This document shows positions 2,577 through 21,680 of a stretch of DNA of 53,283 bases, one piece after another. The notes under the pieces were generated by a model. That model was not told the origin of the DNA, searched no databases, and saw only the letters and a list, made by a program, of their open reading frames with translations. A program made the position numbers and the translations under genes. Where the stretch lies: IMG/VR virus record IMGVR_UViG_3300021090_000027, positions 1 to 53,283 of that record; one strand, given 5' to 3'. Origin of the DNA: a virus. Numbering within the stretch: the stretch's first letter is position 1; each line of letters opens with the position of its first letter.

Positions 2577-3317
2577 ATGACGGTCTATATCCCAGTCGTC
2601 AGTGATGTTCAGGCCCCACTGCACGACCCAAAGGCAGTCTCGGCGGTCTGCACATTACTGGCTGACCGGGATTTAGACTCCGTATCCGTCGGAGACCTCT
2701 CAGACAGCACCCAAATAGGGCAATGGGTGAGAGGAAAATCTGGGGAGCATGATGGTAACCTCGGAAGGCATCGTGACATTGCCGTCCGATTAATGCTTGA
2801 TCTTCGGATTAAGCATATTTCGAGGAGTAACCATGACCAGAGGCTCGAGAGGTACATCCAAGACCACGCTGGTGGTCTTGCTGGATTGCCCGAATTGCGG
2901 ACAGAAGCGTTTCTCCGTCTCGACGAACACGGCGTCACCTACCATCGGAAGCCTTTTAAGCTCGCTCCCGGCTGGCTTCTCATGCATGGTGACGAAGGGT
3001 CACTCAGCCAGAATCCGGGTGTTACCGCACTCAATCTTGCGAAAAAGTCCTTTAAGTCGGTGGTCTGTGGTCACACCCACAGACTGGGCCTCACGCACGC
3101 GCATGGAACGTATTCGGGACTGGTTCAGTCCCACCTTTGGGGGCTTGAGGTAGGCCACTTAATGGACATGCGTCAAGCTACCTACCTGAAAGGTGGCATG
3201 GGGCATTGGCAACCCGGCATAGGGATGCTCATCGTTGACGGTAAAGATGTGATCCCTATGCCGTTGCCCTACATCAACGGGAAAATCTATTTTGATGGGA
3301 AGGTTTACCGTGGTTGA
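2577..3317 (+). CDS. Calcineurin-like metallophosphoesterase
   Basis: This 246-aa protein has the ordered metal-binding motifs of the family: SDVQ near residue 9 (Gln where His is typical), GD at 39-40, SNHD near residue 104, HGDE and GHTH further on. Such enzymes use two metal ions to hydrolyse phosphomono- or diesters; in phages they are variously linked to DNA end processing or nucleotide turnover. The substrate cannot be read from sequence. Its position directly after the DUF2829 gene leaves open cleavage of a nucleotide signal, but DNA metabolism is the more ordinary guess. It overlaps the sigma-like gene by 8 nt. Confidence 0.8.
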   Translation: MTVYIPVVSDVQAPLHDPKAVSAVCTLLADRDLDSVSVGDLSDSTQIGQWVRGKSGEHDGNLGRHRDIAVRLMLDLRIKHISRSNHDQRLERYIQDHAGGLAGLPELRTEAFLRLDEHGVTYHRKPFKLAPGWLLMHGDEGSLSQNPGVTALNLAKKSFKSVVCGHTHRLGLTHAHGTYSGLVQSHLWGLEVGHLMDMRQATYLKGGMGHWQPGIGMLIVDGKDVIPMPLPYINGKIYFDGKVYRG

Positions 3318-4008
3318 GCCGGTGCTCGTACCACGGTACGTAGTGCAGAACAAAGCTGAACTTGTCTGCCGCAAGTACCGGAGGTACATAGAATTCGAGG
3401 ATGTGGAACAAATCGGGGAGCTGTGGATGCTGGAGCATCCGGAGAAACTCACAGAGTACATGGAGATGGAAGAGCCTCGCCTCGCGGCGTGGCGACTCGG
3501 GCAGGACCTATGGCGGGCTATGGAACGGTACGCCCGGAAAGAACGAGCCCACGCTGTTGGTTACAAATCAGAAGATGAAGAGTTCTACACTGAGGGGATG
3601 ATCAAACTCATCCTTCCCAGGGTCCTCAATGGTGTTATCGAACCTGATGTGAGGGCACGTGAGGAGATTAAGGCACCGAAGGACCCAGCTGAGGGCGGGG
3701 ATTACCTAGCTAGCTACCTGGATGTGCAGCGTGCGTGGCGGTTGGCGTCGTTGGCGGCAATGGAAAGAGGTGTCCTGGAGTACACGTACATTCATGGTCT
3801 CTCACAGGAGGCCATAGGATCGGTTCTGGGGCTCTCGCAGCCCACCGTGTCACGAGCGTACGACAGGGGCATTCGGAAGCTTCAGAGGTACCTTGGAGGG
3901 GCTAAGCCGGGTGATTGCCCATACTCGTGTGAGTGCCATGAAGGGAAACTCAGGGTTCGCCCCGGTACGCGGGGCAACGACAGTGGGAAACATCAACTCA
4001 TAGGATGA
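3310..4008 (+). CDS. Sigma-70-like transcription factor
   Basis: The GTG at 3310 with GGAAGG six nt upstream is the preferred start (an ATG at 3295 has a poorer site), giving 232 aa. Residues 20-80 resemble a sigma region-2 segment (EFEDVEQIGELWML). Residues about 165-200 form a clear region-4 helix-turn-helix (LSQEAIGSVLGLSQPTVSRA) followed by a basic recognition end. The tail holds a Cys cluster (CPYSCEC). A natural role would be redirecting host RNA polymerase to phage promoters. It lies near the end of the early block. Confidence 0.75.
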   Translation: MVEPVLVPRYVVQNKAELVCRKYRRYIEFEDVEQIGELWMLEHPEKLTEYMEMEEPRLAAWRLGQDLWRAMERYARKERAHAVGYKSEDEEFYTEGMIKLILPRVLNGVIEPDVRAREEIKAPKDPAEGGDYLASYLDVQRAWRLASLAAMERGVLEYTYIHGLSQEAIGSVLGLSQPTVSRAYDRGIRKLQRYLGGAKPGDCPYSCECHEGKLRVRPGTRGNDSGKHQLIG

Positions 4009-7673: not shown

Positions 7674-7719
7674 TTATCACCCTTTTCCTGGTTATCACGC
7701 GTGTCTGCATGATAGGAAA

Positions 7720-7756: not shown

Positions 7757-7760
7757 CAAC

Positions 7761-9158: not shown

Positions 9159-9164
9159 CGAACC

Positions 9165-9551
9165 CTACGGGGGATCTTCGAGGGTTTCGTAGTCCTCTGG
9201 TGTGGCACGCCTGCTACCAGGCGGCAACTCTGGTACCGGATTTTCGCCCACCACGGGCCAACCAGGTCCGTCCTTAACCAGTGCAAGGGGCGGATTCAGC
9301 GCCCGTGCTGCGGCCTGGTCACCAGCATTCGCGCGGCGCGTCAACCGCGCATACGTGTGAGCGCCACGGGCGCGACCATTAGCCGGTTGGATCGGCTCGG
9401 CCGGATGGTAATTCTTCGGGCGTGGCCCCCCATAGTACAACCACATGCCCATCTGATAAATACCATCAGCGAATTCCTCGCCTCTATCAGTATCCATCCT
9501 AACTTCAGACATGAGTTGTTCTATTTCTTCATTAGTGCGGCGAGTAAACAC
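9165..9551 (-). CDS. Hypothetical protein (128 aa)
   Basis: GTG start with AGAGGGG six nt upstream, overlapping the previous stop by one base. The N-terminal half is helical with aromatic residues (YQMGMWLYYGGPRP), the C-terminal half Pro/Ala-rich. Function unknown. Confidence 0.65.
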   Translation of the reverse strand: MFTRRTNEEIEQLMSEVRMDTDRGEEFADGIYQMGMWLYYGGPRPKNYHPAEPIQPANGRARGAHTYARLTRRANAGDQAAARALNPPLALVKDGPGWPVVGENPVPELPPGSRRATPEDYETLEDPP

Positions 9552-9673
9552 TAATCACCCCTCTTGAAAAACTTGACCAGGACGCGGATAGCTTTACGCA
9601 TGAGAAGCCATGCGCCACCGTAAACGATGATACCGATGATGATGGTCAGTAGACCATCGATGAGGAATGCCAT
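9551..9673 (-). CDS. Small membrane protein (40 aa)
   Basis: The short ORF has an N-terminal hydrophobic helix (LLTIIIGIIVYGGAWLLM) and a basic C-terminal end (KAIRVLVKFFKRGD), an arrangement of an inner-membrane micro-protein. Its stop overlaps the next GTG start. Upstream GAAAGGGG is a little distant. Function unknown. Confidence 0.55.
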   Translation of the reverse strand: MAFLIDGLLTIIIGIIVYGGAWLLMRKAIRVLVKFFKRGD

Positions 9674-9729
9674 TAGTCGGTCGTGCCCCTTTCAGTGGTT
9701 GGTTTCATTGCTCTGCGCAACGACGGAAA

Positions 9730-9751
9730 CGCTCACACTTTCGGGTGAGCG
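9730..9751 (-). terminator. Weak hairpin terminator
   Basis: A 7-bp stem (9730-9736 with 9745-9751) followed on the minus strand by TTTCC lies just past the stop of gene 9773-10039. Confidence 0.45.
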
Positions 9752-9772
9752 CAACCGACATCATTCAACAGA

Positions 9773-10039
9773 TCATCCTACCTGCCTGACATCCACGCTA
9801 GAGATATGCGCACCGGGGCAACTTGCCCGCATGATCAGGAGCGCTCTTTCGTTAGACATCTCGGCACTAGTAATAGTGCTGGAGTTGTTGTGTGTCGGAC
9901 AATCCACATCAACATGTGCCGAGAACGGCCTTTCGATCCGCGTCTGATCGAGTATTACCTTCGGATCGAAGCCTGCCACTTGTTCAGTGGTTGGCAGCCG
10001 GTCAAAAAATGCGCTGATTCGTACGACTCCCATCGCCAT
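9773..10039 (-). CDS. Hypothetical protein (88 aa)
   Basis: The ATG at 10039 has GAAGGG six nt upstream. The sequence is beta-rich with a Ser/Thr stretch (HNNSSTITSAEMS) and ends in a V/D-rich strand. It lies 3 nt after the upstream gene. No family recognised. Confidence 0.6.
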   Translation of the reverse strand: MAMGVVRISAFFDRLPTTEQVAGFDPKVILDQTRIERPFSAHVDVDCPTHNNSSTITSAEMSNERALLIMRASCPGAHISSVDVRQVG

Positions 10040-10042
10040 TAC

Positions 10043-10522
10043 TTACCCTTCCTCTCCTGTTGCTTCGGCAATGATACGTGCCTGATCAGCCCGAAACGGA
10101 GGGTTGCGCACGTCCCGCAACGTCTCCAGCTCCACCAAAAGCTCTTGAACCGCCGTCTTCAGTGCCTCATCCCCACGATAGCGGTAGAACCCTGCAAGAG
10201 CCCGAATAGACTGCGGTGAACACTCGTCCGCCAGGGCACCCATACGGGCCTTACGGGCCCGCTCAGCAGCATCCAACGCCGCTGTAGCCGCTGTGATCCG
10301 ATCCCAAGCGGTCCGCTTGTTGTAACACCCATGCAACGACAGACCATCAGGTGCTTCCCGTTGACCTTCCGCGTTAAGGAACATCACCTTGACAGTGCTT
10401 CCCATGTCCGCTGCCTCCCATCCGAGTAAGACACCTTCTGGAATGATGCCCGCTGCCCTAGCGGCACGCTGAAAACCAGCAATAGCATTGCTGACATCCT
10501 GCGACGTAATATGTTTACCCAT
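10043..10522 (-). CDS. Hypothetical helical protein (159 aa)
   Basis: Strong ribosome binding site (GGGGAGAG) before the ATG. The protein is mostly alpha-helical, with an Ala/Arg-rich central region (AALDAAERARKARMGALA) likely to form a coiled coil and an acidic C-terminus. Function unknown. Confidence 0.7.
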   Translation of the reverse strand: MGKHITSQDVSNAIAGFQRAARAAGIIPEGVLLGWEAADMGSTVKVMFLNAEGQREAPDGLSLHGCYNKRTAWDRITAATAALDAAERARKARMGALADECSPQSIRALAGFYRYRGDEALKTAVQELLVELETLRDVRNPPFRADQARIIAEATGEEG

Positions 10523-10570
10523 CCCTACACTCTCCCCTTTTTACTTGTTGAGTCCTGATTAACTCCGGCA

Positions 10571-10602
10571 AAGCAGAACAACTAATAAAAGTTGTTCTGC
10601 TT
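10571..10602 (-). terminator. Hairpin, probable terminator
   Basis: A perfect 13-bp stem (10571-10583 with 10590-10602) with a 6-nt loop lies just past the stop of gene 10615-10785. The downstream tract is not T-rich, so termination may be partial. Confidence 0.5.
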
Positions 10603-10614
10603 CACTGCAAACAA

Positions 10615-10785
10615 TCAGAGCTTGAACGCCGATGTTTCCGTGACAATCCGATCCGACCGGCGGATAGCCGGACGCCTACCCTCCAATGCTAGGGCACGCA
10701 ACTGGTTGTAATAGTCGTCCGCCTGTTCCAGTTCACCATCGGCCAGAGCAACCAGGAATAGGCGGAGTAACCGGTCCGGGGTCAT
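10615..10785 (-). CDS. Hypothetical protein (56 aa)
   Basis: The ATG at 10785 overlaps the upstream stop (ATGA). The 56-aa product is helical and acidic in the first half (LEQADDYYNQLRALALEG) and Arg-rich in the second. It was recovered by reading the minus strand directly. Function unknown. Confidence 0.65.
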   Translation of the reverse strand: MTPDRLLRLFLVALADGELEQADDYYNQLRALALEGRRPAIRRSDRIVTETSAFKL

Positions 10786-11177
10786 GCGCAGTCACAATCA
10801 GCGGCGTCACGATCGCAGCAGGGGACCTTGACCGGACCGAACACCTGTTCCGCTTCATCGACAGGCTTCAGTAACTCCTGAATTTCCGCCATGTTCGCGT
10901 TCAACGCGTACGCACCTTCGAGGTGATCCGCTGACATATCAATCGGCAAACCTGCCTCGTACCGCCGGTAATACGTCTTGTAACCCTCCCATACACGGGT
11001 GGGGTACCGTTCGGTCAACTCAGCAATCAGAGCGGCGAAACCCTGAGCGTGCATCACGCTCTGATTCACTAACGGATTCGCTTCTTGCGCGCCGAACATG
11101 TAAAACATGGCACGGTCGTAACTCTCGGATCCGAGAGACGCCCACGCATGATAAAGGCGCGGTGAGTACTTGACCAT
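10782..11177 (-). CDS. Hypothetical protein with C-terminal Cys cluster (131 aa)
   Basis: The start at 11177 has AAAGGGGAGA upstream; the longer frame to 11327 runs through an intergenic hairpin and is rejected. The protein is mainly helical and ends in a Cys-rich tail (PCCDRDAADCDCA) that could bind metal. Function unknown. Confidence 0.7.
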   Translation of the reverse strand: MVKYSPRLYHAWASLGSESYDRAMFYMFGAQEANPLVNQSVMHAQGFAALIAELTERYPTRVWEGYKTYYRRYEAGLPIDMSADHLEGAYALNANMAEIQELLKPVDEAEQVFGPVKVPCCDRDAADCDCA

Positions 11178-11240
11178 AATATTTCTCCCCTTTTTAATTC
11201 GTGGTTGATCGTCAATCCGGTTGATCGACTTAAGCCAACG

Positions 11241-11262
11241 TTCCGGGCCCTGAAGCCCGGAA
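11241..11262 (-). other. Intergenic hairpin upstream of 10782-11177
   Basis: An 8-bp GC-rich stem (11241-11248 with 11255-11262) with a 6-nt loop sits in the gap between gene 11297-11587 and gene 10782-11177. It could be a terminator without a U-run or a transcript-stabilising element. Confidence 0.45.
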
Positions 11263-11296
11263 GATGACTTGAACCGGTCAACCCCTGTGAGCCGTT

Positions 11297-11587
11297 CTAC
11301 GGCTCGAACACAGCCACCGTGTAGCACTGCCCTAGGTGAGTGTCCGTTGGACCGTCCACGTGGACGCTACCCACGTCCCTAGGGTCACCATGCATGAACG
11401 TGTGAGCGTCAACGTAGCGGGCATCAACCGCTTCCTTATCATGGTCAAGGTCGTATTCCCCCGTCCAATCCGAGTCAAGCTCACCCACAAGATACGCCCA
11501 AGCCTCGGGGATGGTATCGAACACTGGCGGGTCATCATCCATCGGCAAATACCCGGGCTGATTGACGGTCGCAAGATATTGGGTCAT
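11297..11587 (-). CDS. Hypothetical protein (96 aa)
   Basis: The start at 11587 follows GAGGAGAAA. The sequence is acidic with repeated D/H (WTGEYDLDHDKEAVDA) and ends in a hydrophobic strand (CYTVAVFEP). Function unknown. Confidence 0.65.
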   Translation of the reverse strand: MTQYLATVNQPGYLPMDDDPPVFDTIPEAWAYLVGELDSDWTGEYDLDHDKEAVDARYVDAHTFMHGDPRDVGSVHVDGPTDTHLGQCYTVAVFEP

Positions 11588-11604
11588 GACTCTTTTCTCC
11601 TCTA

Positions 11605-12294
11605 TCAGGAATTGTTGCTTGGGTGCCAATCCCAGACCCGAACAGTCCGGGTCTCGGTTGTCCGCTCACGCGATAACCCGCCCGATGGCGTGATATCACG
11701 CACCCATGTCATTGTCTCATTGGTTGATCGCAGCTCAGAGAATGACGTGTGAATCGTGCCCGGACCATGCCCCGACCACGGATGCCCCTCGCGTCCACCG
11801 AACATGATCCGACCCCCGTAAGGGTGAGCATCGGGAATCATGTCGATGAATCCCAGTGAACCAACAGGCGCTGAATGATTGGCCCACCCCCATGGGGACG
11901 CGATACGCACGACGTCACCAGCAACCGGTAGTGGCGTGTGTGTTCCGTCCGGTTCATAGAGTCCGACACGCTCACCCTTGAGGTAGTGCTCAAGGTGCCA
12001 TTCAATCGTGCTCGCGGCCATGCCGGATGGGGCATTGCTTGACTTGATAAACTCTTCTGCTACCTCTCTCCGTTCCTCGGGCAGAGACAAGTCGTATCCG
12101 CGACTGGTACCGAACTCAGCAACAATCTTCGGGTGATACCTCATGACTTTTTCCCCTTCATTCTCTGGCTTGACTAGCCAGGCCATTACGCCGAACGTCT
12201 CATTTCCGTCTGTTACTATCCACATTTCACCCGCTAGGGTCTGGTGGCCGGTACTTACAACGTCATAGACGTTGCCACATGACCGAACTTTCAT
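11605..12294 (-). CDS. Hypothetical protein with SH3/KOW-like C-terminal region (229 aa)
   Basis: The full frame has two plausible starts. ATG 12294 has a moderate site (AAGG, 10 nt). The internal ATG 12144 (179 aa) has the block's standard strong site (GAAGGGGAAA). Residues 120-200 have alternating glycine and beta strands (VAGDVVRIASPWGW, SLGFIDMIP) like an SH3-type barrel. Two products from one frame are possible. Function unknown. Confidence 0.6.
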   Translation of the reverse strand: MKVRSCGNVYDVVSTGHQTLAGEMWIVTDGNETFGVMAWLVKPENEGEKVMRYHPKIVAEFGTSRGYDLSLPEERREVAEEFIKSSNAPSGMAASTIEWHLEHYLKGERVGLYEPDGTHTPLPVAGDVVRIASPWGWANHSAPVGSLGFIDMIPDAHPYGGRIMFGGREGHPWSGHGPGTIHTSFSELRSTNETMTWVRDITPSGGLSRERTTETRTVRVWDWHPSNNS

Positions 12295-12306
12295 AATTCT
12301 TTTGCC

Positions 12307-12576
12307 TTATCGCTTGTAGGGCTTGACCGAGTACACGCGTGCCGACGTGTCGGCATCATCGACAAGCACACGGTCCGTTGTCCGCTCATCCGCCGGTAGG
12401 TACTCCGTCCACAAGTACCGGTAACCCGCGTACCGGTCAGTGTCATGTAGCACACCTTCGATTACCTGTGCCAGAGCTAAACGTGTTTCCCTGTCGGCCG
12501 GACAATTGGCCCGTGACGCCGCGATCATCCTGTTAACCCTGTCAACAAGATCAGACACCTGCACATTCTTAAGCAT
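12307..12576 (-). CDS. Hypothetical protein (89 aa)
   Basis: The start at 12576 has a very strong purine tract upstream (AGGGGAAAGGAAGGAAAGG). The longer frame to 12678 runs through two hairpins and is rejected. The N-terminal half is helical (VSDLVDRVNRMIAASRANC), the C-terminal half carries many charged residues. Function unknown. Confidence 0.65.
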   Translation of the reverse strand: MLKNVQVSDLVDRVNRMIAASRANCPADRETRLALAQVIEGVLHDTDRYAGYRYLWTEYLPADERTTDRVLVDDADTSARVYSVKPYKR

Positions 12577-12605
12577 AACCTTTCCTTCCTTTCCCCTGAT
12601 AAATA

Positions 12606-12647
12606 GAGTGACCTGTTCACTCTCCAAACCACACACATTGTGTGTGG
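12606..12647 (-). other. Two adjacent hairpins in an intergenic gap
   Basis: Two perfect stem-loops, 12606-12622 (6-bp stem, 5-nt loop) and 12629-12647 (8-bp stem, 3-nt loop), fill the gap between gene 12666-13004 and the start region of 12307-12576. No clear U-run is present on either side. Confidence 0.55.
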
Positions 12648-12665
12648 CAAGGGCAACGAACAACG

Positions 12666-13004
12666 TCAACGCCACCACGTGTAAGCGTGGCGTGTCCCGT
12701 GCAACCGGTTACCGCACCCATCACACGATGACTGCGAGAACTCACGTTCCTCACAGTCACAATCGAACGCCTCAGCGTTCTCATCAAAACCCTCATGCTC
12801 CGGATTCTTCTCACACTCATGATTCTCCATGAACCTGCCGTGAGTAACATCGATTCCTTTCATGCGCGACCACAGACCATCGGCCGCACGCTCATTCGCG
12901 CTGTGATCTTCACAGCACTCACCGTTCTCCCGAGAGAGCATGCAACAATCACATACCCATATTTCTCCCTGCGGTTGAGTACGCTTAACAAGGTTCACTC
13001 TCAT
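12666..13004 (-). CDS. Cys-rich protein, 'CDCCML..NGEC' family (112 aa)
   Basis: The ATG at 13004 overlaps the upstream stop. The N-terminal region has WVCDCCMLSRENGECC, a motif seen in uncharacterised actinophage proteins. The second half has further Cys pairs (FDCDCEE, CDGCG) suggesting two metal sites. It is also rich in E and H. Function unknown. Confidence 0.7.
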   Translation of the reverse strand: MRVNLVKRTQPQGEIWVCDCCMLSRENGECCEDHSANERAADGLWSRMKGIDVTHGRFMENHECEKNPEHEGFDENAEAFDCDCEEREFSQSSCDGCGNRLHGTRHAYTWWR

Positions 13005-13258
13005 CACACTTTCCCCTTAATGCTCGCATCATGAATCAGAGTCACCGCAGAATGCAACGACTCACGCTTACCAGTAGCAATCCCACGGTAAAAACCACGG
13101 GTAAAAGATCCACGCAACGTGTCCGTTGCGTACATGCCTAATCCGGCCCACAGGACACCATGACAGACTTCCTCGCTGATGCGTCCATCGGCCATAGCGC
13201 GGCCGATGAACTCACCAGCATACGAGGCTTGTAGATTAGCGGGCGGAGGACCCGCCAT
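13004..13258 (-). CDS. Hypothetical protein (84 aa)
   Basis: The ATG at 13258 overlaps the upstream stop (TGATG). The sequence has small-residue-rich segments (GEFIGRAMADGRIS, VLWAGLGMYATDTLRG), a pattern of packed helices. Function unknown. Confidence 0.65.
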   Translation of the reverse strand: MAGPPPANLQASYAGEFIGRAMADGRISEEVCHGVLWAGLGMYATDTLRGSFTRGFYRGIATGKRESLHSAVTLIHDASIKGKV

Positions 13259-13713
13259 CACGTAGTCAACCGCCAAGCAACAGCCCAGCCATCGGGGCCC
13301 TCCTCGCAGGACTCATCACATTCCTCATTGCACGAATGGTGGGACTCTATGACCACGTAATACCCGGGAGTCTCGAGTATTTCATCGGCCAACCTGCCAC
13401 CGACGAACTCTGAATCATGCATGATGTGCCCACCACCCATCTGGAATGACTCACCCATCAGAGTCCACGGAACCGCGCCGAGGTAATTCGCTAGTTCGCC
13501 ATCGTTCAACTCTGGCACCCACATATCAGAATGGAGAGTGCCGTTAGCTAGTCTCCATTCTGTAAGGTCATCGCTCACGCTTCCGTCAGCGTGAACCTCA
13601 ATAATGTGATCCCATTCCATGATGTCATGCAGAGTGCGAACACCCGAACCCCCCACAAGGAACGCACGATCACCATAATGATCATGCCCTGGCATTCTCG
13701 TATATTTAGACAT
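13258..13713 (-). CDS. Hypothetical protein with Cys pairs (151 aa)
   Basis: The start at 13713 follows AAGGGGAAAGG; the frame to 13758 is a non-coding extension. The C-terminal part has C-x3-C-x3-C (SCNEECDESCEEG). The middle is acidic with Met/Gly stretches. Function unknown. Confidence 0.65.
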   Translation of the reverse strand: MSKYTRMPGHDHYGDRAFLVGGSGVRTLHDIMEWDHIIEVHADGSVSDDLTEWRLANGTLHSDMWVPELNDGELANYLGAVPWTLMGESFQMGGGHIMHDSEFVGGRLADEILETPGYYVVIESHHSCNEECDESCEEGPDGWAVAWRLTT

Positions 13714-13751
13714 TACCTTTCCCCTTCCTACGGTGAACCATTCACCATTAC

Positions 13752-13788
13752 CGTGCACCCCGTACCCTTAGAGGGTACGCAATGCACG
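13752..13788 (-). other. Two-part hairpin
   Basis: An inner 8-bp stem (13761-13768 with 13772-13779, 3-nt loop) is nested in an outer 6-bp stem (13752-13757 with 13783-13788). It lies between the 20-aa ORF and gene 13258-13713. Confidence 0.55.
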
Positions 13789-13803
13789 ATAAAAGAGACA
13801 CGT

Positions 13804-13866
13804 TCACAAGCCGCTACACGCGTCATAGATGACGAATACCAGAATCGCTATCATGATCCATGTCAT
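13804..13866 (-). CDS. Very small membrane peptide (20 aa)
   Basis: The ATG at 13866 overlaps the upstream stop (ATGA); the frame ends at TGA 13804. The peptide is one hydrophobic helix (WIMIAILVFVIY) with a Cys near its end. It resembles the other micro-membrane ORFs of this genome (204-275, 9551-9673) in layout, not sequence. Tentative because of its size. Confidence 0.4.
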   Translation of the reverse strand: MTWIMIAILVFVIYDACSGL

Positions 13867-14324
13867 CGGACACTCTCCCCACACGCTGGCTTCACACTGT
13901 ACCCACACTCACACGCCGCCACATTAAAACCAGTCAACGGGCCAGACACATAACCAACACCAACCGGTGAATCCGTGTCACACTCCTTACACAAATAACC
14001 CGTGACATTATGAGCGAAGAAATGATCATCCTCCCGCATCTGTTCCATGACATAAGCAATGGACTCACCCGACTCGATCACGGATCGGATGATCTGATCA
14101 GCATGAACCGGCCCATACAAGTGGCCGAGAACCGATTTCTCGGCCTGTTCGATGTGGTGGTACACCGTACCGGGCATCGGCCCGGAATCGTGCACGTTCA
14201 CCATGTCGCGCATGACATCCAACGTGTTCGCTAACGTCCACATTTCCTTGAACGTCATCTTGTAGTCCGGGCGGAAACGTTGCTCGTTATACGTAACGAG
14301 CGCTTCCGTATAACTACTAGACAT
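13863..14324 (-). CDS. Hypothetical protein with C-terminal zinc ribbon (153 aa)
   Basis: The start at 14324 has GGGGAGAGAAC upstream; the frame to 14396 is rejected for lack of a site. The body is helical. The C-terminus has CKECDTDS and, about 25 residues on, CECG with a late Cys, consistent with a zinc ribbon. Function unknown. Confidence 0.7.
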   Translation of the reverse strand: MSSSYTEALVTYNEQRFRPDYKMTFKEMWTLANTLDVMRDMVNVHDSGPMPGTVYHHIEQAEKSVLGHLYGPVHADQIIRSVIESGESIAYVMEQMREDDHFFAHNVTGYLCKECDTDSPVGVGYVSGPLTGFNVAACECGYSVKPACGESVR

Positions 14325-14404
14325 GTTCTCTCCCCTGGTTGGGTCACCCTGGTTGAGTAACTCATTGACTCCGCACTCATAAGGAATGCAGAGCAATCAA
14401 CCAC

Positions 14405-14740
14405 TCATCCGTAAACGATCCTGCCGTAAACAACCAGTTGAATCAGCGAATCCATAGCAACAGCGTCCGGATCATCATCCTTGAAAGCCTCATAATTGCG
14501 TGAGCCTCTCTGAATCTCCGTCTTACCCATCATGACTTTAGTAACCATGCTCCGCACAGCACCACGGGTGAAACGGAACAACCTGCGGTCCTCCTCATCC
14601 TCGGACACACCGTCATACATGAAGACCGTGTAATTCCCATCGGATATCCCGATATACGTGGCGTACCACTCCCATTGATCGGCACCAGAACCAGTCACAT
14701 GGTCATCGGTCTCTTCATCGGTCCAACGACAGATAGCCAT
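14405..14740 (-). CDS. Hypothetical protein (111 aa)
   Basis: The start at 14740 follows GGGGAGAGCTG. The protein begins with MAICRWTDEETDD and has an aromatic, beta-like middle (WEWYATYIGISDGNYTVFMY) followed by helices. No family recognised. Confidence 0.65.
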   Translation of the reverse strand: MAICRWTDEETDDHVTGSGADQWEWYATYIGISDGNYTVFMYDGVSEDEEDRRLFRFTRGAVRSMVTKVMMGKTEIQRGSRNYEAFKDDDPDAVAMDSLIQLVVYGRIVYG

Positions 14741-14750
14741 CAGCTCTCCC

Positions 14751-14897
14751 CTAACTCTCGTCATCGTGAACACAGTCAAGGACAGTAATAAACCGCCCCT
14801 CACGCTCCGTTTCCTCATCCGAGCACTTGAGGCAATAAGCATTCACATTGCCCATTGTGTAACCATGTCCTCTAAATTCAGCATCAGGACTGATCAT
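14751..14897 (-). CDS. Small Cys-containing protein (48 aa)
   Basis: The ATG at 14897 has a strong site (AAGGGGAGAGATC). The product has CLKC and a later single Cys next to His (DCVHDD), so metal binding is possible. It ends 10 nt before the next start. Function unknown. Confidence 0.6.
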   Translation of the reverse strand: MISPDAEFRGHGYTMGNVNAYCLKCSDEETEREGRFITVLDCVHDDES

Positions 14898-14908
14898 GAT
14901 CTCTCCCC

Positions 14909-15085
14909 TTAATACTTGAGTTGCCTGGCCAGTGCCTCACGGATGTCAGACTCACTCACACCCATACTGCGGAGGATCTGCTCCGCAAGCATCACCGAAA
15001 GATCAATGTCTTTCGCCGTTCCCACTTCGCACAACTCGACAACATTGACTGTGATCAGTTTCTTCTGTTGCTTAGTGAGATACAT
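14909..15085 (-). CDS. First gene of the minus block: small helical protein (58 aa)
   Basis: The ATG at 15085 follows AAGGGGAGAGAGC. The protein is basic at its N-terminus (LTKQQKKLITVNVV) and ends with a helical segment (SESDIREALARQLKY). It is the promoter-proximal gene of the accessory block. Function unknown. Confidence 0.65.
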   Translation of the reverse strand: MYLTKQQKKLITVNVVELCEVGTAKDIDLSVMLAEQILRSMGVSESDIREALARQLKY

Positions 15086-15950
15086 GCTCTCTCCCCTTGA
15101 TTGACTAACAGTGGACTGCGCAACTGATCAGCATGAGGACTTACATGGTCGTCGCCTGAGTGCATCGTGATACTGCACGTCTCTGATTCAGCCTCACAGA
15201 CAGCCGTTAGGCTGTAGGGAGACTCTTGCCGGTAAGCGCGCCTTACGCCGCTTCACCTAAGCGCGTGTCGGGGGACTGGTCACCATGTGACTCTGCCTCT
15301 CACCGGTAAACCACCGTGCCCCGCTCAATGCGGGATGGCAGTCAACCGGGTGACTCTCGCGTCTTAGCCGGTCCATTCAGTTATGAAGCATCAAGTTCAG
15401 TGCTACGGCTTACGTAGCTTCGATCCAGCTAGCTACGGCGCATCGAACGGTGGAACACCCCTGATCCTACCCCCACCAGCAACCCTGATCATCGGGTAAA
15501 CACCCGATAACAAGTCATACAATCACCCCATTGACAACACAGCGGTAGCTGTGATTAGTCCACACACAGTCACCAACACAAGATCAACAACAACAGAAAG
15601 TAACCTAAATTCACTACAATGATTAGTACAATAATCGTCTCACCATGTGAGACTGCCAGCATCAGACAGCACGCGTCAGCGTCCCAGCACTGTGCTTGCC
15701 GACCACAACCAGGCAAGCACCATCCAAGGGCGCCACAAGCGCCAGAGACAAGTAGACAGGCAACCACCCAGTTGCCTGCAATGACCCATGATTTCAATCA
15801 CCCCAATAAGACATCAGAACAAACTAGAACACGTTCTAGTTTAAAGAAAGGATAATCGACCACGGTCGATGATTAGAACAAGCGTTCAATTCATTGCATG
15901 CTGGCGCGTTGGCGCGCATTGTGGATCATGGTGGCCTGGAAGGGCCACAT
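15086..15950. other. Hairpin-rich non-coding leader of the minus block
   Basis: No ORF with a credible start is seen on either strand. The region holds many short stem-loops, including 15200-15215, 15232-15246, 15279-15291, 15320-15334, 15402-15418, 15491-15508, 15538-15553, 15637-15653, 15692-15720, 15729-15743, 15757-15778, 15821-15842, 15855-15870 and 15931-15948. Stems are 5-10 bp with mostly short loops, and the sequences differ. The direction of transcription is unknown; the minus block needs a promoter somewhere here. A structured 5' leader, non-coding RNA or replication origin are all possible. Confidence 0.7.
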
Positions 15951-16267
15951 TAGGTGATTAGTAAGTATTACAGCGTCATCTATAATGCCGGGTCAGGGCT
16001 GTACTGTATACGCGGCATACGCGCGTATATGGTGTATTACTGTGTAGTATGTTTATGGTGTACACAGCTGTGACCAGCATGGTTGTGTTTCCCAACTGTC
16101 CTCGTGGTTTGGGTGATTCCTAAAGGATCATGAGGGTTTATTAGTTGTCCTACGCTAAGTGTCCGGTTTGACCCGGGGATGCCTTATCGCCCCCCCTCTC
16201 CCCCCTCTACAATCATCAAAAATTTATCCTCCCGGTTTATTTTCATGATCATCTATGCAGGTGGGGT
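15951..16267. other. Non-coding gap with composition shifts
   Basis: No gene is seen. The stretch holds an alternating TA/GC tract near 16005-16030, a C-rich run (about 16190-16205) and an AT-rich segment before 16260. Such composition change could mark an origin or divergent promoters, but nothing definite can be assigned. Confidence 0.4.
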
Positions 16268-16660
16268 GGAAAAACTTTGAGGTTTTTCCTTGTATCAGTG
16301 CAGGTCAGAGGCTGTGTGACGGAGGTCACACAGTGGTGGTTGAATATTTGGTGTTTTTTTGTGCAGCTATATATATGAGACCTTTTGCAAAAAGGTCGAT
16401 GAGAGAAGGCAACGCCTCAGGGCGTTGCCTGATCGTCCGCGATAGCGGACTCTGGCACACCCCAAGGTGTGCCCTTACTAGTGTGAGGGCCGATCCTGAC
16501 GGATCGGCTTAATTATGGTTAGGGGAGCACTGGTGGTGCTCCCAGATTCATTCACCGCTGCTAAGCGGTTCAGCGTCAGCCGAAGCGGAACCCGGATGGG
16601 TTCCGGATACTTATACGCGCGTAAGAAACTTTTGAGGCCGTGAGCCTCCCATGGAGGCTC
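16268..16660 (+). other. Hairpin array in the late operon leader
   Basis: Consecutive perfect hairpins: 16268-16289, 16312-16333, 16380-16396, 16407-16430 (10 bp, TCAG loop), 16435-16450 (GATA loop), 16454-16473 (CCAA loop), 16489-16508 (TGAC loop), 16523-16543, 16554-16569 (GCTA loop), 16587-16604 (GGAT loop) and 16642-16660 (CAT loop). The last contains the GGAGG ribosome binding site of the first late gene in its 3' arm; an alternative stem 16634-16648 would disrupt it. This suggests a regulated leader RNA. Confidence 0.75.
16348..16375 (+). promoter_or_regulatory. Possible late promoter
   Basis: A TTGGTG element at 16348-16353 and TATATA at 16370-16375 are separated by 16 nt and lie just before the densest part of the hairpin array. 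The -35 match is imperfect, so this could also be a promoter for a phage sigma-like factor, or not a promoter. Confidence 0.35.
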
Positions 16661-16663
16661 CCC

Positions 16664-17527
16664 TTGGCAGACTTGGATACGTATTCTAGTACGATCACCG
16701 CGAACGCTCAATCGTTCGTGGTTGATACTATTTCGTGCACTGGCGCGTATGTGACAACGTTTGGTACGCATGCTGGTGTGGTTGTTGCTTTTGAGGGTAC
16801 GAACGATGGTGGTACCACGTGGTACGCGTTGAGCGCATTCACGATTAGTGCGGCTGGTGTGCCTGCGGGTACGGCGACCCTGTCTACGAATGGGTCGGCA
16901 CAGTTTTATGTGATTGTTGGTTTGGCGAAGCAGATGCGGGTTAGGTCGACGGCGTATACGTCGGGGACTGTGCAGTTGTCGGTGATGCCGGTTGAGGAAG
17001 CTGATCCGATGTTGTTGACGTCGGCGTCGACGTCGGCGTCTGCGGCGTTGCAGGATACGTTGACGAATCCGACGACGTCTCAAATTGGTGCGGACCAGAT
17101 GTTGTATAACGGGACGTCGTGGGATCGTGCCCGGAGCAATGTTTCTTCTCAGCAGGTGGAGGCGTCCGCTGCGCGGACGACTACCGCTAACGGTACAACG
17201 AACAATAACTATAACTGGCGTGGCGGTAATTTTCTTGTGAATGTGACGGCGGCGTCGGGTACGACTCCGACGTTGGTTGTTCGTTTGCAGTACACGATTA
17301 ACGGTACTGATTACCATGATTTAGATGCGACTAATGCTGTGACTGGGTCGATTACGACGACCGGTCAGCATATTCTGCGCGTGTATCCGGGGTTGACGGC
17401 GGCTGCGCCGACTGGTGGTTTGTCGGTGGCTAGTACGGTGTTGCCTCGCTTGTATCGGCCTGCTTGGGTCATTGGTGGGACTACACCGAGTTTCACTTTT
17501 TCTATTACTGCAACGTATTCTCTTTAA
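16664..17527 (+). CDS. Beta-rich virion structural protein (287 aa)
   Basis: A TTG start at 16664 is preferred because GGAGG lies six nt upstream; a GTG at 16640 lacks a site. Two beta-sandwich-like halves are visible: residues about 25-115 (GVVVAFEGTNDGGTTWYALS, a pattern common in phage surface proteins) and 180-287. Thr, Ser, Ala and Gly dominate, as in decoration or appendage proteins. Its place before the terminase is unusual. Possible roles are head decoration, head fibre or tail appendage. Confidence 0.65.
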   Translation: MADLDTYSSTITANAQSFVVDTISCTGAYVTTFGTHAGVVVAFEGTNDGGTTWYALSAFTISAAGVPAGTATLSTNGSAQFYVIVGLAKQMRVRSTAYTSGTVQLSVMPVEEADPMLLTSASTSASAALQDTLTNPTTSQIGADQMLYNGTSWDRARSNVSSQQVEASAARTTTANGTTNNNYNWRGGNFLVNVTAASGTTPTLVVRLQYTINGTDYHDLDATNAVTGSITTTGQHILRVYPGLTAAAPTGGLSVASTVLPRLYRPAWVIGGTTPSFTFSITATYSL

Positions 17528-17538: not shown

Positions 17539-17760
17539 ATGGCTGATAACGCGTATAACACTCCAACTCCTGGTCCTTTGGGTGAGAAGCCGTTTGGTGC
17601 TGATTGGGATGCTGCGGTTACTACGCAGCCTTTCATTTTGGTGTCTGAGGCTGGTGTGATCAACACTATTTGGGTTGATGCTACTGGTGATCTTCGGATT
17701 AAGCAGACGACGGCTCCGACGTCGGGCACCGATGGTACTGTGATTGGTACTCAGGCGTAA
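17539..17760 (+). CDS. Small probable structural protein (73 aa)
   Basis: The ATG at 17539 follows AAGGATTTC and lies 11 nt after the previous stop. The product has a Pro/Gly-rich N-terminus and a beta-rich second half (VINTIWVDATGDLRI) ending in a T/G repeat. It overlaps the terminase start by one base. Possibly a decoration or fibre base protein. Confidence 0.6.
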   Translation: MADNAYNTPTPGPLGEKPFGADWDAAVTTQPFILVSEAGVINTIWVDATGDLRIKQTTAPTSGTDGTVIGTQA

Positions 17761-19652
17761 TGGCTAATCCGGCGGGGATCAGCCGGAAGCTTGAGGCGCA
17801 GGAAGTTGTTCTCCGGGAAATCAGTCTGGGGAAAACTGTTGCTGAGGCGTGTGAGACTGCCGGTAGGTCCGTAAAGAGTTATGAGAACTGGCGGTCTGAG
17901 GACCCTGCCTTCGCTGGCAGGGTTGATGAGGCCCGGTCTAACCGGAACTTCATGAAGAAGACTGGTGTGTCGAAAGACAATGTTCGGATGTCTTTCGAGG
18001 AGTGGCGTTTTAAGTTTTTGGGTCGTGAGACGTATCCGCATCAGCGGATGTGGATTGATATTATTGAGGGTCGGGAGCCGACGGATTTGCATCCGTCGAT
18101 GGTGTATGAACCGGCCAGACCGAACCGGTTGCTGATTAACACTCCTCCGTTCCATGCTAAGTCCACGATTATTACGCAGGAGTATGTTGCGTACCGTATT
18201 TGTATGAAGGCCACGGTACGTGTATGTATCGTTTCTAAAACACAGCAGAAGGCCAAAAAATTTTTATATAGCGTGAAAAAGATGCTGACGTCTCGCCAGT
18301 ATGCTCCGATGCAGGCGGCGTATGCACCGCCTGATGGTTTCAGGCATCCGGATTTCCCGTGGACTGCTACCATGATTTACGTTGATAACCCTGAGGGGTC
18401 CGAGAAGGATCCCACGGTGGAAGTCCTCGGGATCAGGGGAGACATCTATGGTGGCCGGTACGACCTGATCATCCTTGATGACTGTGTCACGAAGGAGAAC
18501 TGTAGCGAGTGGGAGAAGCAACTTGACTGGATCAACCAGGAGGTTTCTTCCCGGCTCTACAAGGGCAAGCTCATCGTGGTGGGTACACGAGTCGCTAGCA
18601 CGGACCTTTACAGCGAACTGCGGAATCCAGACAACTTCACGTCAGGCGTTTCCGCCTGGACGTACTTGTCGCAACCAGCGGTGCTACAGTTCGCTGATGA
18701 CCCTCAGGACTGGACGACGCTGTGGCCCCGATCGAATGCCCCGCTTGATGCGGAGGACGCGGGAGAACCAGATGCAGACGGTTTGTATGCGGCTTGGGAC
18801 GGACCTGCGCTCCGTGAAGTACGCGATGCTATTCGTCTCTCCACCTGGTCTCTTGTCTACATGCAACAACAGGTGGCTGACGATGCGGTATTTAATCCGG
18901 AGTGCGTACGTGCCTGCGTCAACCGTATCCGGAAACCGGGCCCGCTGATAGCTGGTGCTTTCGGTCATCTCCGTCAGGGGATGGAGGGCCAGTACATTAT
19001 TGCGAGTATGGACCCGGCGATGACCGGGGAAACATTCACCCTCGTGTATGCGGTGGATAAGAACGATAAGAAGCGTAGGGTGTTGAATTGTTGGGCGAAG
19101 GCTTCGCCTACGCCCGCATATATTCGGGATATGATCCAGGCGGTCACTGAAGAGTACGGTGTTCATGAATGGGTTATTGAGCAGAACGCTTTCCAGTTGT
19201 TCCTGATTCATGATGAACGTATTCGCGCGTATTGTAATTCGCGTGGGGTGAAGATCACCCCACACTACACCAGTAGGAATAAGATTGACCCTGATTTTGG
19301 GGTTGCGTCTGTGGCCCCGTTGTTCGGGTCCTTGAAGGTACGCGATGACGGGCGCAGGACAGGTCTTGACCATAATGGGGATAACTTCATTGAGCTCCCT
19401 TTGAACAACAATGAGGGTATCAAAGCCCTCATTGACCAGTTGATTACCTGGGAACCAGGGAAGCTGGGGAAGAATTTGAAGCAGGACGGCCCTATGGCTC
19501 TGTGGTTCGCGGAACTTCGCGCAAGAGCCATACTGGGAGACGGCCGTCCGAAGCGTCTTCACTTTGTGGAGAATCCCTATCTAAGTCGTGGGGATCGGAA
19601 GCAGCAGGTGGTTGTTCCTGCTGGGTCGTTCCGGACGGTTCTGACTCTGTAG
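17760..19652 (+). CDS. terL: Terminase large subunit
   Basis: This 630-aa protein has an N-terminal helix-turn-helix-like region (residues 15-60), then an ATPase domain with a degenerate P-loop (TPPFHAKST at 128-136) and a Walker B (LIILDD at 236-241). A nuclease domain begins around residue 415 (ASMDPAMTG, with the first acidic metal ligand). Together these drive DNA packaging into the procapsid with ATP and cut the concatemer. No separate small subunit is identified; the N-terminal HTH may supply DNA recognition or the small subunit may be unrecognised. Confidence 0.9.
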   Translation: MANPAGISRKLEAQEVVLREISLGKTVAEACETAGRSVKSYENWRSEDPAFAGRVDEARSNRNFMKKTGVSKDNVRMSFEEWRFKFLGRETYPHQRMWIDIIEGREPTDLHPSMVYEPARPNRLLINTPPFHAKSTIITQEYVAYRICMKATVRVCIVSKTQQKAKKFLYSVKKMLTSRQYAPMQAAYAPPDGFRHPDFPWTATMIYVDNPEGSEKDPTVEVLGIRGDIYGGRYDLIILDDCVTKENCSEWEKQLDWINQEVSSRLYKGKLIVVGTRVASTDLYSELRNPDNFTSGVSAWTYLSQPAVLQFADDPQDWTTLWPRSNAPLDAEDAGEPDADGLYAAWDGPALREVRDAIRLSTWSLVYMQQQVADDAVFNPECVRACVNRIRKPGPLIAGAFGHLRQGMEGQYIIASMDPAMTGETFTLVYAVDKNDKKRRVLNCWAKASPTPAYIRDMIQAVTEEYGVHEWVIEQNAFQLFLIHDERIRAYCNSRGVKITPHYTSRNKIDPDFGVASVAPLFGSLKVRDDGRRTGLDHNGDNFIELPLNNNEGIKALIDQLITWEPGKLGKNLKQDGPMALWFAELRARAILGDGRPKRLHFVENPYLSRGDRKQQVVVPAGSFRTVLTL

Positions 19653-19800: not shown

Positions 19801-19850
19801 TCGGTCACACTTTCCCAGATGCTTTGATCCATAACATAAGAGGATACCAG

Positions 19851-21680
19851 ATGTACGATGCCCACGATTTGGGTGATATCCCCGCAAGGGTAGACGCCCT
19901 GAGGGCTCGCTACACGCTGTCTGATAGCAGGGCTGCGGAGATCCAAGCGGTCCGCCGTGGTGACTTTGAGGCGATTGCCCCGGACCTTTTCAGTGACCAG
20001 TTTAAACGCCCTGTTGTGGCGAATATGATTGACACAGCAGCGAGGGATATGGCTGCAATGCTGGCACCCTTGCCAGCATTCAACTGCTCCTCAAGTAGCA
20101 TGTTGTCTGAGCGGGCCAGGAACTTCGCTGACAAGCGAACGAAGATCGCTAGGGATTATGTGTCGTCGTCTGAGGTTGAGTTGCAGATGGCGGATCGTGG
20201 CGCCGACAACTACAACAGTTATGGCATGCTGGTTGGGTGTGTTGAACCCGACTTTGAGAACAAAACACCCTATATTCGGATCGAATCCAGTGTGGGTGCG
20301 TACCCGGTATGGAATGACCGGGGTGAGACGGTAGAGTTCGCTCGTGTCTACTACCGAGACTGGTTCTCCATCGAAGCCGACTACCCCCACCTTGCCAGTC
20401 TTAAGTCCAAGTACCCTATGGGCGTGCATTCCAACGAACAGGTGGAATGCGTCAAATACGTCAGCGCTAAACGATGCCTCACATATCTTCCTAGGATGGG
20501 AAACTGTCCTCTTGAGGACTTCCCAAACCCTATGGGAAAATGTTACTACTACGTCGCTAAGCGACCCAACGCTGAAGAGGGCGGTATCAAGGGCGCTTAT
20601 GATGATGTCGTCTGGATTCAGCTTGCGCGCCACCGTATTCAAATGCTTCTCATGGAAGGTATTGATAAGAGCGTTCGCGCTCCAATCATCGTCCCCCCTG
20701 ACGTGGATGATGTTTCCCTCGGACCTGATGGGATCATTCACACTGCGGGCGGTGCCGCGAGCGTTGGGCGCGCACGGCTCGAAATGCCAGCACAAGCATT
20801 CGGGGCTGTTGAGCAGCTAAAGGCTGAGGTGCAGGTGGGCTCGATGAGCCCTGAAGCACGCTCAGGTAGTAGTGACGCAAGCCAGATCACCGGTCGTGGT
20901 TTGCAGGAACTCGCAGCTGGTTTCTCTTCGCAGATCAGTGTTGCCCAAACGGTGTTCAAGGCATGGTTTAAGAAGATCATCGCTGGTTGTTTCGAGATGG
21001 ACGAGAAACTATTCCCGTCCAAGAGTAAGGAAATCCGGGGGAACGATGCCGGTGTCCCTTATTCGATTACCTATTCTCCGGCGAAGGATATCAATGGTGA
21101 TCACTCCATTGATATCACGTATGGTTTCGCTGCTGGTCTTGACCCTAACCGGGCTTTGGTGTTCCTACTCCAGGCTGATGGTGCGGGGCTGGTGTCCAAA
21201 GACTACGTGCGGCGTTCACTCCCCGTAGACCTGAACGCCGTTGAGGAAGAGAAGAAGATTGTTGTTGAGCAATCACGGCAATCTATTATTCTTGCGTTCT
21301 CTGCGCTAGCGCAGAGCATACCACAAATGGCTGCGTCGGGTATGGACCCGACTGTGGTGATCTCACAGCAAGCTAAATTCATTATGCTTCTACAAAAGGG
21401 TAAAACAGTGGAGGAGGCTGCGACGGAAGCGTTAGCTCCACCTGAACCGCCTCCTGGTGCACCGGTTGATGAAGCTGGTGCCGCTGCTCCTGGTGCACCG
21501 GGAGGTGCCCCGGCTGGTTTTGAATCTAGTGGGTTGCCTGCTGGTCTGGAGATGGGTGCAGCTACGGAGGGCCCTCAGGGCCGCCCTGACCTATCTCAAA
21601 TGTTCGCCGGTCTTAGCGCTAGCGGTGCTCCCCAATTGTCCGGCGGCGTGAGCCGTCAGGCTCCCGTTGTGAATGGATAA
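19851..21680 (+). CDS. Portal protein
   Basis: The ATG at 19851 follows GAGGATACC; the frame to 19824 is an extension. The 609-aa protein follows terminase and has the feel of a phage portal: helical N-terminus (DIPARVDALRARYTLSD), a beta-rich stem region in the middle (YIRIESSVGAYPVWNDRGE), then long helices (ITGRGLQELAAGFSSQISVA). The C-terminal 90 residues are Pro/Gly/Ala-rich, as in several podovirus-type portals with a disordered barrel. It forms the dodecameric ring for DNA entry and exit. Confidence 0.8.
   Translation: MYDAHDLGDIPARVDALRARYTLSDSRAAEIQAVRRGDFEAIAPDLFSDQFKRPVVANMIDTAARDMAAMLAPLPAFNCSSSSMLSERARNFADKRTKIARDYVSSSEVELQMADRGADNYNSYGMLVGCVEPDFENKTPYIRIESSVGAYPVWNDRGETVEFARVYYRDWFSIEADYPHLASLKSKYPMGVHSNEQVECVKYVSAKRCLTYLPRMGNCPLEDFPNPMGKCYYYVAKRPNAEEGGIKGAYDDVVWIQLARHRIQMLLMEGIDKSVRAPIIVPPDVDDVSLGPDGIIHTAGGAASVGRARLEMPAQAFGAVEQLKAEVQVGSMSPEARSGSSDASQITGRGLQELAAGFSSQISVAQTVFKAWFKKIIAGCFEMDEKLFPSKSKEIRGNDAGVPYSITYSPAKDINGDHSIDITYGFAAGLDPNRALVFLLQADGAGLVSKDYVRRSLPVDLNAVEEEKKIVVEQSRQSIILAFSALAQSIPQMAASGMDPTVVISQQAKFIMLLQKGKTVEEAATEALAPPEPPPGAPVDEAGAAAPGAPGGAPAGFESSGLPAGLEMGAATEGPQGRPDLSQMFAGLSASGAPQLSGGVSRQAPVVNG

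What the first reader, a model, noticed from the sequence alone, without database searches (positions are those of the whole stretch)
16268..16660. Array of eleven perfect hairpins in the late leader, last one covering the ribosome binding site
Eleven perfect stem-loops of 6-10 bp stand in 390 nt, several with exactly 4-nt loops and 4-nt gaps (16407-16430, 16435-16450, 16454-16473). Their sequences are unrelated, so the structure, not the sequence, seems selected. The last hairpin (16642-16660) sequesters the GGAGG of the first late gene and competes with 16634-16648. A put-like antitermination RNA (as in HK022), or a leader that times late expression, would explain it.
Basis: partly seen in the sequence, partly recalled or inferred. 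Interest (0 to 1): 0.85.

Follow-up and report, generated by a model that had tools for sequence, protein, structure and literature searches.

The report
Hairpin array in phage late leader
Just upstream of its virion-building genes this actinobacterial virus carries a tightly packed row of perfect RNA-type hairpins that distant relatives keep in shape but not in sequence, and its whole genome, genes included, holds several times more such hairpins than chance, an unexplained trait of this virus family.

Summary
Confirmed: 11 perfect hairpins (6-10 bp) at 16268-16660; 1000 shuffles give 0.4 on average (maximum 3), fold-energy z = -9.4. The reading needs revision. The first two palindromes lie upstream of a conserved late promoter: 16312-16333 contains the window's only TGTGA-N6-TCACA (Crp-type) site, 53 bp before TATATATA (16368), a layout shared with Streptomyces phages. 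The other nine lie in the inferred leader. Homologous leaders in Streptomyces podophages (Beephvirinae) and many freshwater/soil relatives carry 2-14 hairpins of unrelated sequence; pairing is kept by double compensatory changes (0/500 shuffles in two groups). The hairpins are not terminators (7 of 82 have U-rich tails). The last one pairs the ribosome-binding site of the first gene (TTG at 16664) and persists in two relatives. Put-like antitermination is not supported: no shared sequence, no Rfam match. Unexpected: such hairpins are 2.6-3.7-fold over-represented in coding genes across this family (synonymous-codon control), but not in phiC31, R4, lambda or T7. Best guess: a sequence-independent structural shield of late mRNA (against 5' exonuclease or Rho), plus a closed start site; function is inferred. 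A DNA-level role or a mutational generator of palindromes is not excluded.

The parts
16170..16186 (+). Conserved element GACCC-n(4-6)-(A/T)TG-n-TTA; in Streptomyces relatives it starts about 39 nt before the right end of the direct terminal repeat (packaging terminus). Terminal-repeat end in the window inferred at about 16208.
   Evidence: Same element in L005, L006, L080, L083, L174, freshwater group; exact terminal repeats of 254, 276 and 263 bp in Dennebes, Manuel, Stella end 39 nt after the motif start
16268..16289 (.). Palindrome 1 (GGAAAAAC/GTTTTTCC), upstream of the inferred promoter; role unknown, possible DNA operator
   Evidence: position relative to the -10
16300..16308 (+). GCAGGTCAG motif, single copy in the window, also in the late promoter regions of L005, L006 and L174
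16312..16333 (.). Palindrome 2 = Crp/FNR-type operator TGTGACGGAGGTCACA, the only TGTGA-N6-TCACA site in 53 kb
   Evidence: site-to-TATATATA start distance 53 (window), 51 (Dennebes), 50 (Manuel), 51 (Stella), 51 (L083)
16368..16375 (+). Inferred -10 element TATATATA of the late promoter; transcript start inferred near 16380
   Evidence: same element before the hairpins in Dennebes, Manuel, Stella, L080, L083, freshwater group (TATATATGTAGG); no transcript data
16379..16397 (+). Leader hairpin 1 (8 bp, loop 3), at or near the inferred 5' end
16407..16430 (+). Leader hairpin 2 (10 bp, loop 4)
16435..16450 (+). Leader hairpin 3 (6 bp, loop 4)
16454..16473 (+). Leader hairpin 4 (8 bp, loop 4)
16489..16508 (+). 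Leader hairpin 5 (8 bp, loop 4)
16523..16543 (+). Leader hairpin 6 (8 bp, loop 5)
16554..16569 (+). Leader hairpin 7 (6 bp, loop 4)
16586..16605 (+). Leader hairpin 8 (8 bp, loop 4); the contig of the close relative (L002/L004) begins inside it
16642..16660 (+). Leader hairpin 9, pairs the Shine-Dalgarno GGAGG (16653-16657); kept in L004 with a changed loop and in L080 with a different stem
16634..16648 (+). Alternative 5-bp stem GAGGC/GCCTC that would free the GGAGG; weaker than hairpin 9
16664..17527 (+). First late gene, TTG start (287 aa, unknown function); GTG at 16640 is not conserved
17760..19652 (+). Terminase large subunit, anchor used to find relatives
3292..4008 (+). Phage-encoded sigma factor, candidate reader of the late promoter
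   Evidence: phrog_3512, 7.8e-12; phrog_354, 1.3e-6

Best explanation
The feature is the 5' leader of the late (virion) operon of an actinobacterial podophage of the Beephvirinae-like lineage. Transcription starts (inferred) at a late promoter with a TATATATA -10 box and an upstream Crp-type operator, just past the packaging terminus. The roughly 285-nt leader then folds, as it is made, into nine independent stable hairpins (pairing supported by fold energy and, in relatives, by compensatory changes). Because neither sequence, number nor spacing is conserved, the hairpins most likely work as a mechanical, sequence-independent shield: they leave no long single-stranded stretch in an untranslated leader, so that 5' exonuclease or endonuclease attack, Rho loading or re-annealing to the template is blocked and abundant, lasting late mRNA results. 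The last hairpin closes the ribosome-binding site of the first gene and lowers or gates its translation. The shielding and gating steps are inferred.
For: Excess and stability far beyond chance. Same architecture (terminal-repeat end, often a Crp-type site, TATATATA-like box, hairpins, first late gene) in Streptomyces phages, freshwater relatives and other metagenomic relatives with unrelated hairpin sequences. Compensatory changes: freshwater group 12 both-side cells vs 4.0 shuffled, covariation 0.119 vs 0.037; Streptomyces group 9 of 18 pairs change on both sides, 18 cells vs 5.8, covariation 0.413 vs 0.163; 0/500 shuffles reach these. Only 7 of 82 hairpins have U-rich tails, so they are not a terminator string. 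In coding genes, where hairpins are also in excess, one-wobble stems on the sense strand favour G-U (127 seen, 81.5 expected) over A-C (85 vs 77.6), as expected for mRNA. 5' obstacles stabilise long untranslated mRNA where the 5' exonuclease RNase J works (PMC3997798).
Against: In the leaders themselves no G-U preference is seen (10 G-U vs 10 A-C one-wobble stems) and both strands fold about equally well, so an RNA rather than DNA role is not proven there. Some relatives have equally dense palindromes on the far side of the terminal-repeat element, outside the late leader (L074-L077, L061). No transcript, half-life or structure-probing data exist here. The promoter is inferred from conservation only. 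Compensatory change could not be tested on the window's own hairpins 1-8.
Confidence: 0.42

Rival explanations
1. DNA-level palindromes: the hairpins act in single-stranded or supercoiled DNA next to the terminal repeat (replication, concatemer processing, packaging or protein binding), as packed palindromes do at Streptomyces telomeres.
For: Strict Watson-Crick stems with no strand preference; dense arrays on both sides of the terminal-repeat element in L074-L077 and L061; palindrome 2 looks like a DNA operator; Streptomyces telomeres are tightly packed palindromes in about 300-nt 3' overhangs (PMC4513846).
Against: In freshwater and Streptomyces phages the conserved hairpins stand downstream of the inferred promoter and, in Streptomyces phages, outside the terminal repeat; no conserved loop or stem sequence that a protein could read; the last hairpin tracks the ribosome-binding site; sense-strand G-U preference in genes.
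Confidence: 0.2
2. Mutational by-product: replication of these phages often makes short perfect hairpins (template switching, arm correction) all over the genome; they pile up where no protein is encoded, i.e. in the leader.
For: Genome-wide excess also in genes, mostly confined to loops of 3-8 nt; coding hairpins turn over fast between relatives (33 of 86 still perfect at 16% divergence); perfect stems are enriched far more than one-mismatch stems.
Against: Stems in the freshwater leader are nearly invariant while loops vary; coding stems evolve slower than matched controls in the window pair (0.129 vs 0.171 +/- 0.013), though not in Streptomyces pairs; no one-arm rewriting signature (2 of 28 and 0 of 24).
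Confidence: 0.15
3. Processive antitermination or anti-pausing RNA that works like put of HK022: the leader modifies RNA polymerase so that the long late operon is read through.
For: Position just after the promoter of a long operon; terminator-like hairpins with U-rich tails close to the first gene in some relatives (L027, L080, and L006 with a TTTTT tail).
Against: put needs specific residues and a conserved two-stem fold (PMC9378689), whereas no sequence or number is conserved here; no Rfam match; the window leader has no terminator to read through.
Confidence: 0.1
4. Timing or attenuation leader: alternative folding (16634-16648 vs 16642-16660) switches the ribosome-binding site of the first late gene.
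For: Two exclusive stems; SD hairpin present in L004 and L080 with different sequence.
Against: The rival stem does not appear in any minimum-free-energy fold; explains one hairpin, not the array; most relatives have no perfect hairpin over the SD.
Confidence: 0.1

Closest known systems
put elements of phage HK022
   Same: Structured RNA shortly downstream of a phage promoter, acting in cis
   Different: put is ~70 nt, two stem-loops, conserved residues that bind RNA polymerase, early genes (PMC9378689). Here 2-14 short hairpins of free sequence, late genes; no antitermination shown
5' stabiliser hairpins and 5' roadblocks of bacterial mRNA (general class; ompA and T7 gene 10 leaders recalled from memory)
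   Same: Stem-loops in an untranslated leader; sequence-independent effect expected
   Different: Known cases have one or a few stem-loops; here an array of nine, and up to fourteen in L005
Streptomyces telomere palindromes
   Same: Tightly packed perfect short palindromes at a replicon end, actinobacterial
   Different: Telomere palindromes are conserved in sequence, bound by Tap, need terminal protein (PMC4513846); here sequence is free, relatives' ends are direct terminal repeats, and the array lies outside the repeat
Highly expressed non-coding RNAs at the left end of actinobacteriophage genomes (Rhodococcus phage WC1, mycobacteriophages)
   Same: Untranslated transcribed region near the genome end and the structural operon
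   Different: No hairpin array is described there in the text found (PMC10986025); different phages
Beephvirinae Streptomyces phages (Dennebes, Manuel, Stella, Abafar)
   Same: Homologous late operon, terminal-repeat element, Crp-type sites, TATATATA, leader hairpins with compensatory changes
   Different: Two main leader hairpins instead of nine; hairpins not mentioned in the Abafar paper (PMC11536984)

Membership tests
put antitermination RNA | about 70-nt element with two long stem-loops and conserved residues | tested here: not met
   nine short hairpins, sequences unrelated between relatives; no Rfam match
put antitermination RNA | suppresses pausing and termination by RNA polymerase in cis | not testable with these tools
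   needs transcription assays
Intrinsic terminator string / attenuator | GC-rich hairpin followed by a U tract | tested here: not met
   7 of 82 leader hairpins have >=5 T in 8 nt; none in the window
Structured RNA leader (covarying hairpins) | base pairs kept by compensatory changes | tested here: met
   on homologous leaders of relatives; not on the window's own hairpins 1-8, for which no close relative was found
Structured RNA leader (covarying hairpins) | pairing acts in RNA of the coding strand (G-U tolerated, strand preference) | tested here: inconclusive
   leaders: G-U 10, A-C 10, both strands about equal; coding hairpins: G-U favoured
Streptomyces-type telomere | sequence-conserved palindromes at the physical end with terminal protein | tested here: not met
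   relatives have direct terminal repeats of 254-276 bp and the array lies outside them; no conserved palindrome sequence; terminal protein not searched
Crp/FNR-regulated promoter | TGTGA-N6-TCACA operator at fixed distance from the -10 | tested here: met
   only site in the window; 50-53 bp before TATATATA in five phages, allowing one deviating base in L083 and the second Streptomyces sites; protein binding not tested
Beephvirinae-like podophage | homologous terminase, portal and capsid, divergent early operon, sigma factor | tested here: met
   terminase about 42% identical over 96%; sigma factor, metallophosphoesterase, DnaB-like helicase, primase; formal taxonomy not tested

The most novel reading that the evidence does not exclude
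This phage family has hairpin-studded transcripts: selection (or a dedicated replication mechanism) keeps several-fold more perfect short hairpins in all its mRNAs, coding regions of both operons included, and the late leader is only the densest stretch. The hairpins would be a sequence-free, genome-wide armour of phage RNA or DNA, a kind of genome property not described for double-stranded DNA phages as far as I know.
Probability: 0.3. Interest if true: 0.85.

Novelty: new variant of a known kind. Interest (0 to 1): 0.62.

Why it matters
It shows a large, mostly uncultured phage family in which untranslated leaders are built from interchangeable hairpins, with cultured Streptomyces members (Dennebes, Manuel, Abafar) in which the role can be tested directly. 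The coding-region excess, absent from lambda, T7, phiC31 and R4, is a measurable genome trait that either reveals selection on phage mRNA structure or a palindrome-making mutation process; both would be new handles on phage RNA survival and genome evolution. It also gives a late-promoter model (Crp-type site plus phage sigma factor) for these phages.

Tried and rejected
Rfam scans at gathering and at E<=1: only tRNAs, and a sub-threshold whalefall-1 hit on the minus strand. DNA search of the leader region in the phage collection: no match. TTTGACCCGGGGATG was first taken for a promoter; it proved to be the terminal-repeat end element. Terminator string: rejected. Strand asymmetry by fold energy and by wobble type in leaders: no signal. 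Template-switch signature (one arm rewritten): not seen. A scan with an early protein to recover the close relative's leader found nothing; its contig starts inside hairpin 8, so compensatory changes could not be tested on the window's own hairpins 1-8. L056, L058, L059, L060, L062, L063 are chance matches of the 15-mer. An E. coli terminator control for the wobble test was too small to use.

Full report
OBSERVATION. The window is a 53,283-base virus record. A mechanical scan finds exactly the eleven perfect stem-loops reported, in the densest 400 nt of the window. In 1000 dinucleotide-preserving shuffles the same stretch gives 0.4 such hairpins on average and never more than 3; the fold energy is -185.9 against -131.4 +/- 5.8 kcal/mol, z = -9.4.

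WHOSE GENOME. The record encodes a terminase large subunit (17760-19652), portal (19824-21680), capsid (31158-32114), a sigma factor (3292-4008), primase, DnaB-like helicase, metallophosphoesterase and PD-(D/E)XK nuclease. The terminase is about 42% identical over 96% of its length to Streptomyces podophages of the Beephvirinae and 41-66% to many metagenomic contigs. The close relative L004 (93% in the first late protein, 98% in the terminase) begins inside hairpin 8, so the rest of its leader is missing.

ANATOMY. In Dennebes, Manuel and Stella an exact direct terminal repeat of 254, 276 and 263 bp ends 39 nt after the start of a motif ACCC-n-TTGTTAA. The same element, GACCC-n-ATG-n-TTA, stands at 16170-16186 of the window and in L005, L006, L080, L083, L174 and, in variant form, the freshwater group, so the packaging terminus of the window phage lies (inferred) near 16208, just before the region in question. 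Next come, in several of these phages, a TGTGA-N6-TCACA palindrome and a TATATATA box. In the window this palindrome is 'hairpin 2' (16312-16333) and is the only such site in 53 kb; start-to-start distances to TATATATA are 53, 51, 50, 51 and 51 bp in window, Dennebes, Manuel, Stella and L083 (in the last four the site deviates by one base). This is the layout of a Crp/FNR-type activator site upstream of a -10 (general knowledge; binding not tested). So the first two 'hairpins' are upstream of the inferred late promoter and the leader proper, from about 16380 to 16663, holds nine. The first gene starts at TTG 16664: its GGAGG is spaced 6 nt, and the GTG at 16640 is absent from the relative.

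RELATIVES KEEP THE SHAPE, NOT THE SEQUENCE. Freshwater phages carry four hairpins after TATATATGTAGG, others three, two or one; L080, L083, L005 and L006 carry seven to fourteen, all with different sequences; Streptomyces phages carry two or three. In 14 distinct freshwater leaders 99.0% of cells pair (shuffled 94.0%), 12 cells have changes on both sides (shuffled 4.0), covariation 0.119 (0.037), none of 500 shuffles as high. In seven Streptomyces leaders nine of 18 pairs have changes on both sides, 18 cells vs 5.8, covariation 0.413 vs 0.163, again 0/500. Related sequences can inflate such shuffles, but sliding the partners by 1-3 columns all but abolishes the signal in both. The hairpin over the ribosome-binding site is present in L004 with a shortened stem and new loop, and in L080, whose first protein is 47% identical, with another stem (GCCTCCGT/ACGGAGGC), again with GGAGG in the 3' arm and a TTG start.

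NOT TERMINATORS, NOT put. Only 7 of 82 leader hairpins are followed by a U-rich tail, none in the window. put RNA is about 70 nt with two stem-loops and many inactivating point mutations (PMC9378689); the arrays here share no sequence, and no Rfam family matches.

RNA OR DNA. Perfect palindromes fold equally on both strands. In 22 leaders, stems with one wobble are no commoner as G-U than as A-C (10 and 10; 5.6 expected each), while perfect stems are 119 against 15 expected; fold energy does not prefer the coding strand. So the leader by itself does not prove an RNA role. Streptomyces-borne relatives L074-L077 and L061 have still denser arrays on both sides of the terminal-repeat element.

UNEXPECTED GENOME-WIDE TRAIT. 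With the leader region left out, the window still has 280 perfect hairpins of at least 6 bp against 68 expected, 62 against 6.3 at 8 bp or more; Dennebes 226/76 and 51/7; freshwater relatives 2.3-3.3-fold; phiC31 0.90, T7 0.85, lambda 1.43, E. coli 1.33-1.44. In genes, against shuffles that keep protein and codon use, the excess is 3.7-fold in the window, 2.6 in Dennebes, 2.9 in L006, 3.2 in L005, and 0.84, 1.0 and 0.66 in phiC31, lambda and T7; it is largely confined to loops of 3-8 nt. A second run gives z = 15 (window), 9-13 (Dennebes, Manuel, Stella late genes) and 5-7 (their early genes), against 1.5 in R4 and -0.4 in phiC31; sense-strand G-U stems are enriched (127 vs 81.5, summed over the family), A-C are not (85 vs 77.6). 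Coding hairpins turn over fast: 33 of 86 are still perfect at 16% divergence; stems are somewhat slower than matched controls in the window pair (0.129 vs 0.171 +/- 0.013) but not in Streptomyces pairs; pairing-preserving double changes in genes are in mild excess (138 vs 89 summed over twelve non-independent comparisons). Whether weak selection or a palindrome-making mutation process drives this is open; no one-arm rewriting was seen.

MECHANISM. Shown: the hairpins, their significance, their recurrence at one place in the operon, compensatory evolution in relatives, the ribosome-binding-site hairpin. Inferred: the promoter, the transcript, co-transcriptional folding, shielding of the leader from 5' attack or Rho, and gating of the first gene. 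A sequence-free shield fits best because nothing but pairing is kept; 5' obstacles are known to stabilise long untranslated mRNA where RNase J works (PMC3997798, which also mentions the RNase J of Mycobacterium).

NOVELTY. Structured leaders are known; arrays of 9-14 interchangeable hairpins across a phage family, and the genome-wide hairpin excess, were not found described in the open papers searched. I file the leader as a new variant of a known kind and give the genome-wide reading separately.

Noticed in passing
window 1-15100 and 16664-53283: Genome-wide excess of perfect short-loop hairpins, also in coding genes (3.7-fold over a synonymous-codon null), shared by Beephvirinae relatives but not by phiC31, R4, lambda, T7 or E. 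coli.
   Followed up: partly
window 15637-15948: Five more perfect hairpins on the far (early-operon) side of the divergent region; z = -8.2 on + and -3.6 on - strand.
   Followed up: partly
L074-L077 (Streptomyces isolates) and L061: 20-36 perfect hairpins in about 1-1.8 kb of mostly intergenic DNA on both sides of the terminal-repeat element in L074-L077, and a similar dense array in L061; L076 lies on a 46-kb contig at coverage 273, which may be an unintegrated phage.
   Followed up: partly
window 16312-16333; L055 284-299 and 339-354; L064 306-321 and 363-378: Crp-type operators at the late promoter, nearly unique in each genome, suggesting control of late genes by a Crp/FNR-family regulator of host or phage.
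   Followed up: partly
window 16300-16308; L160 45556; L163 44499; L005 490; L006 2475: Conserved GCAGGTCAG motif, once or twice per genome, mostly in the late promoter or the terminal divergent region; function unknown.
   Followed up: no
L018 6139-6240 and other freshwater loci: Cluster of TGTGGATAA/TTATCCACA (DnaA-box-like) repeats just upstream of the terminal-repeat element, a possible replication origin.
   Followed up: no
L002/L004 position 1: The metagenomic contig of the close relative ends inside a leader hairpin, suggesting that such arrays break assemblies and are under-represented in databases.
   Followed up: no
window 30347-30493: Two tRNA genes (Met CAT, Thr TGT) among the late genes, where Dennebes carries a cluster of 22 tRNAs.
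   Followed up: no
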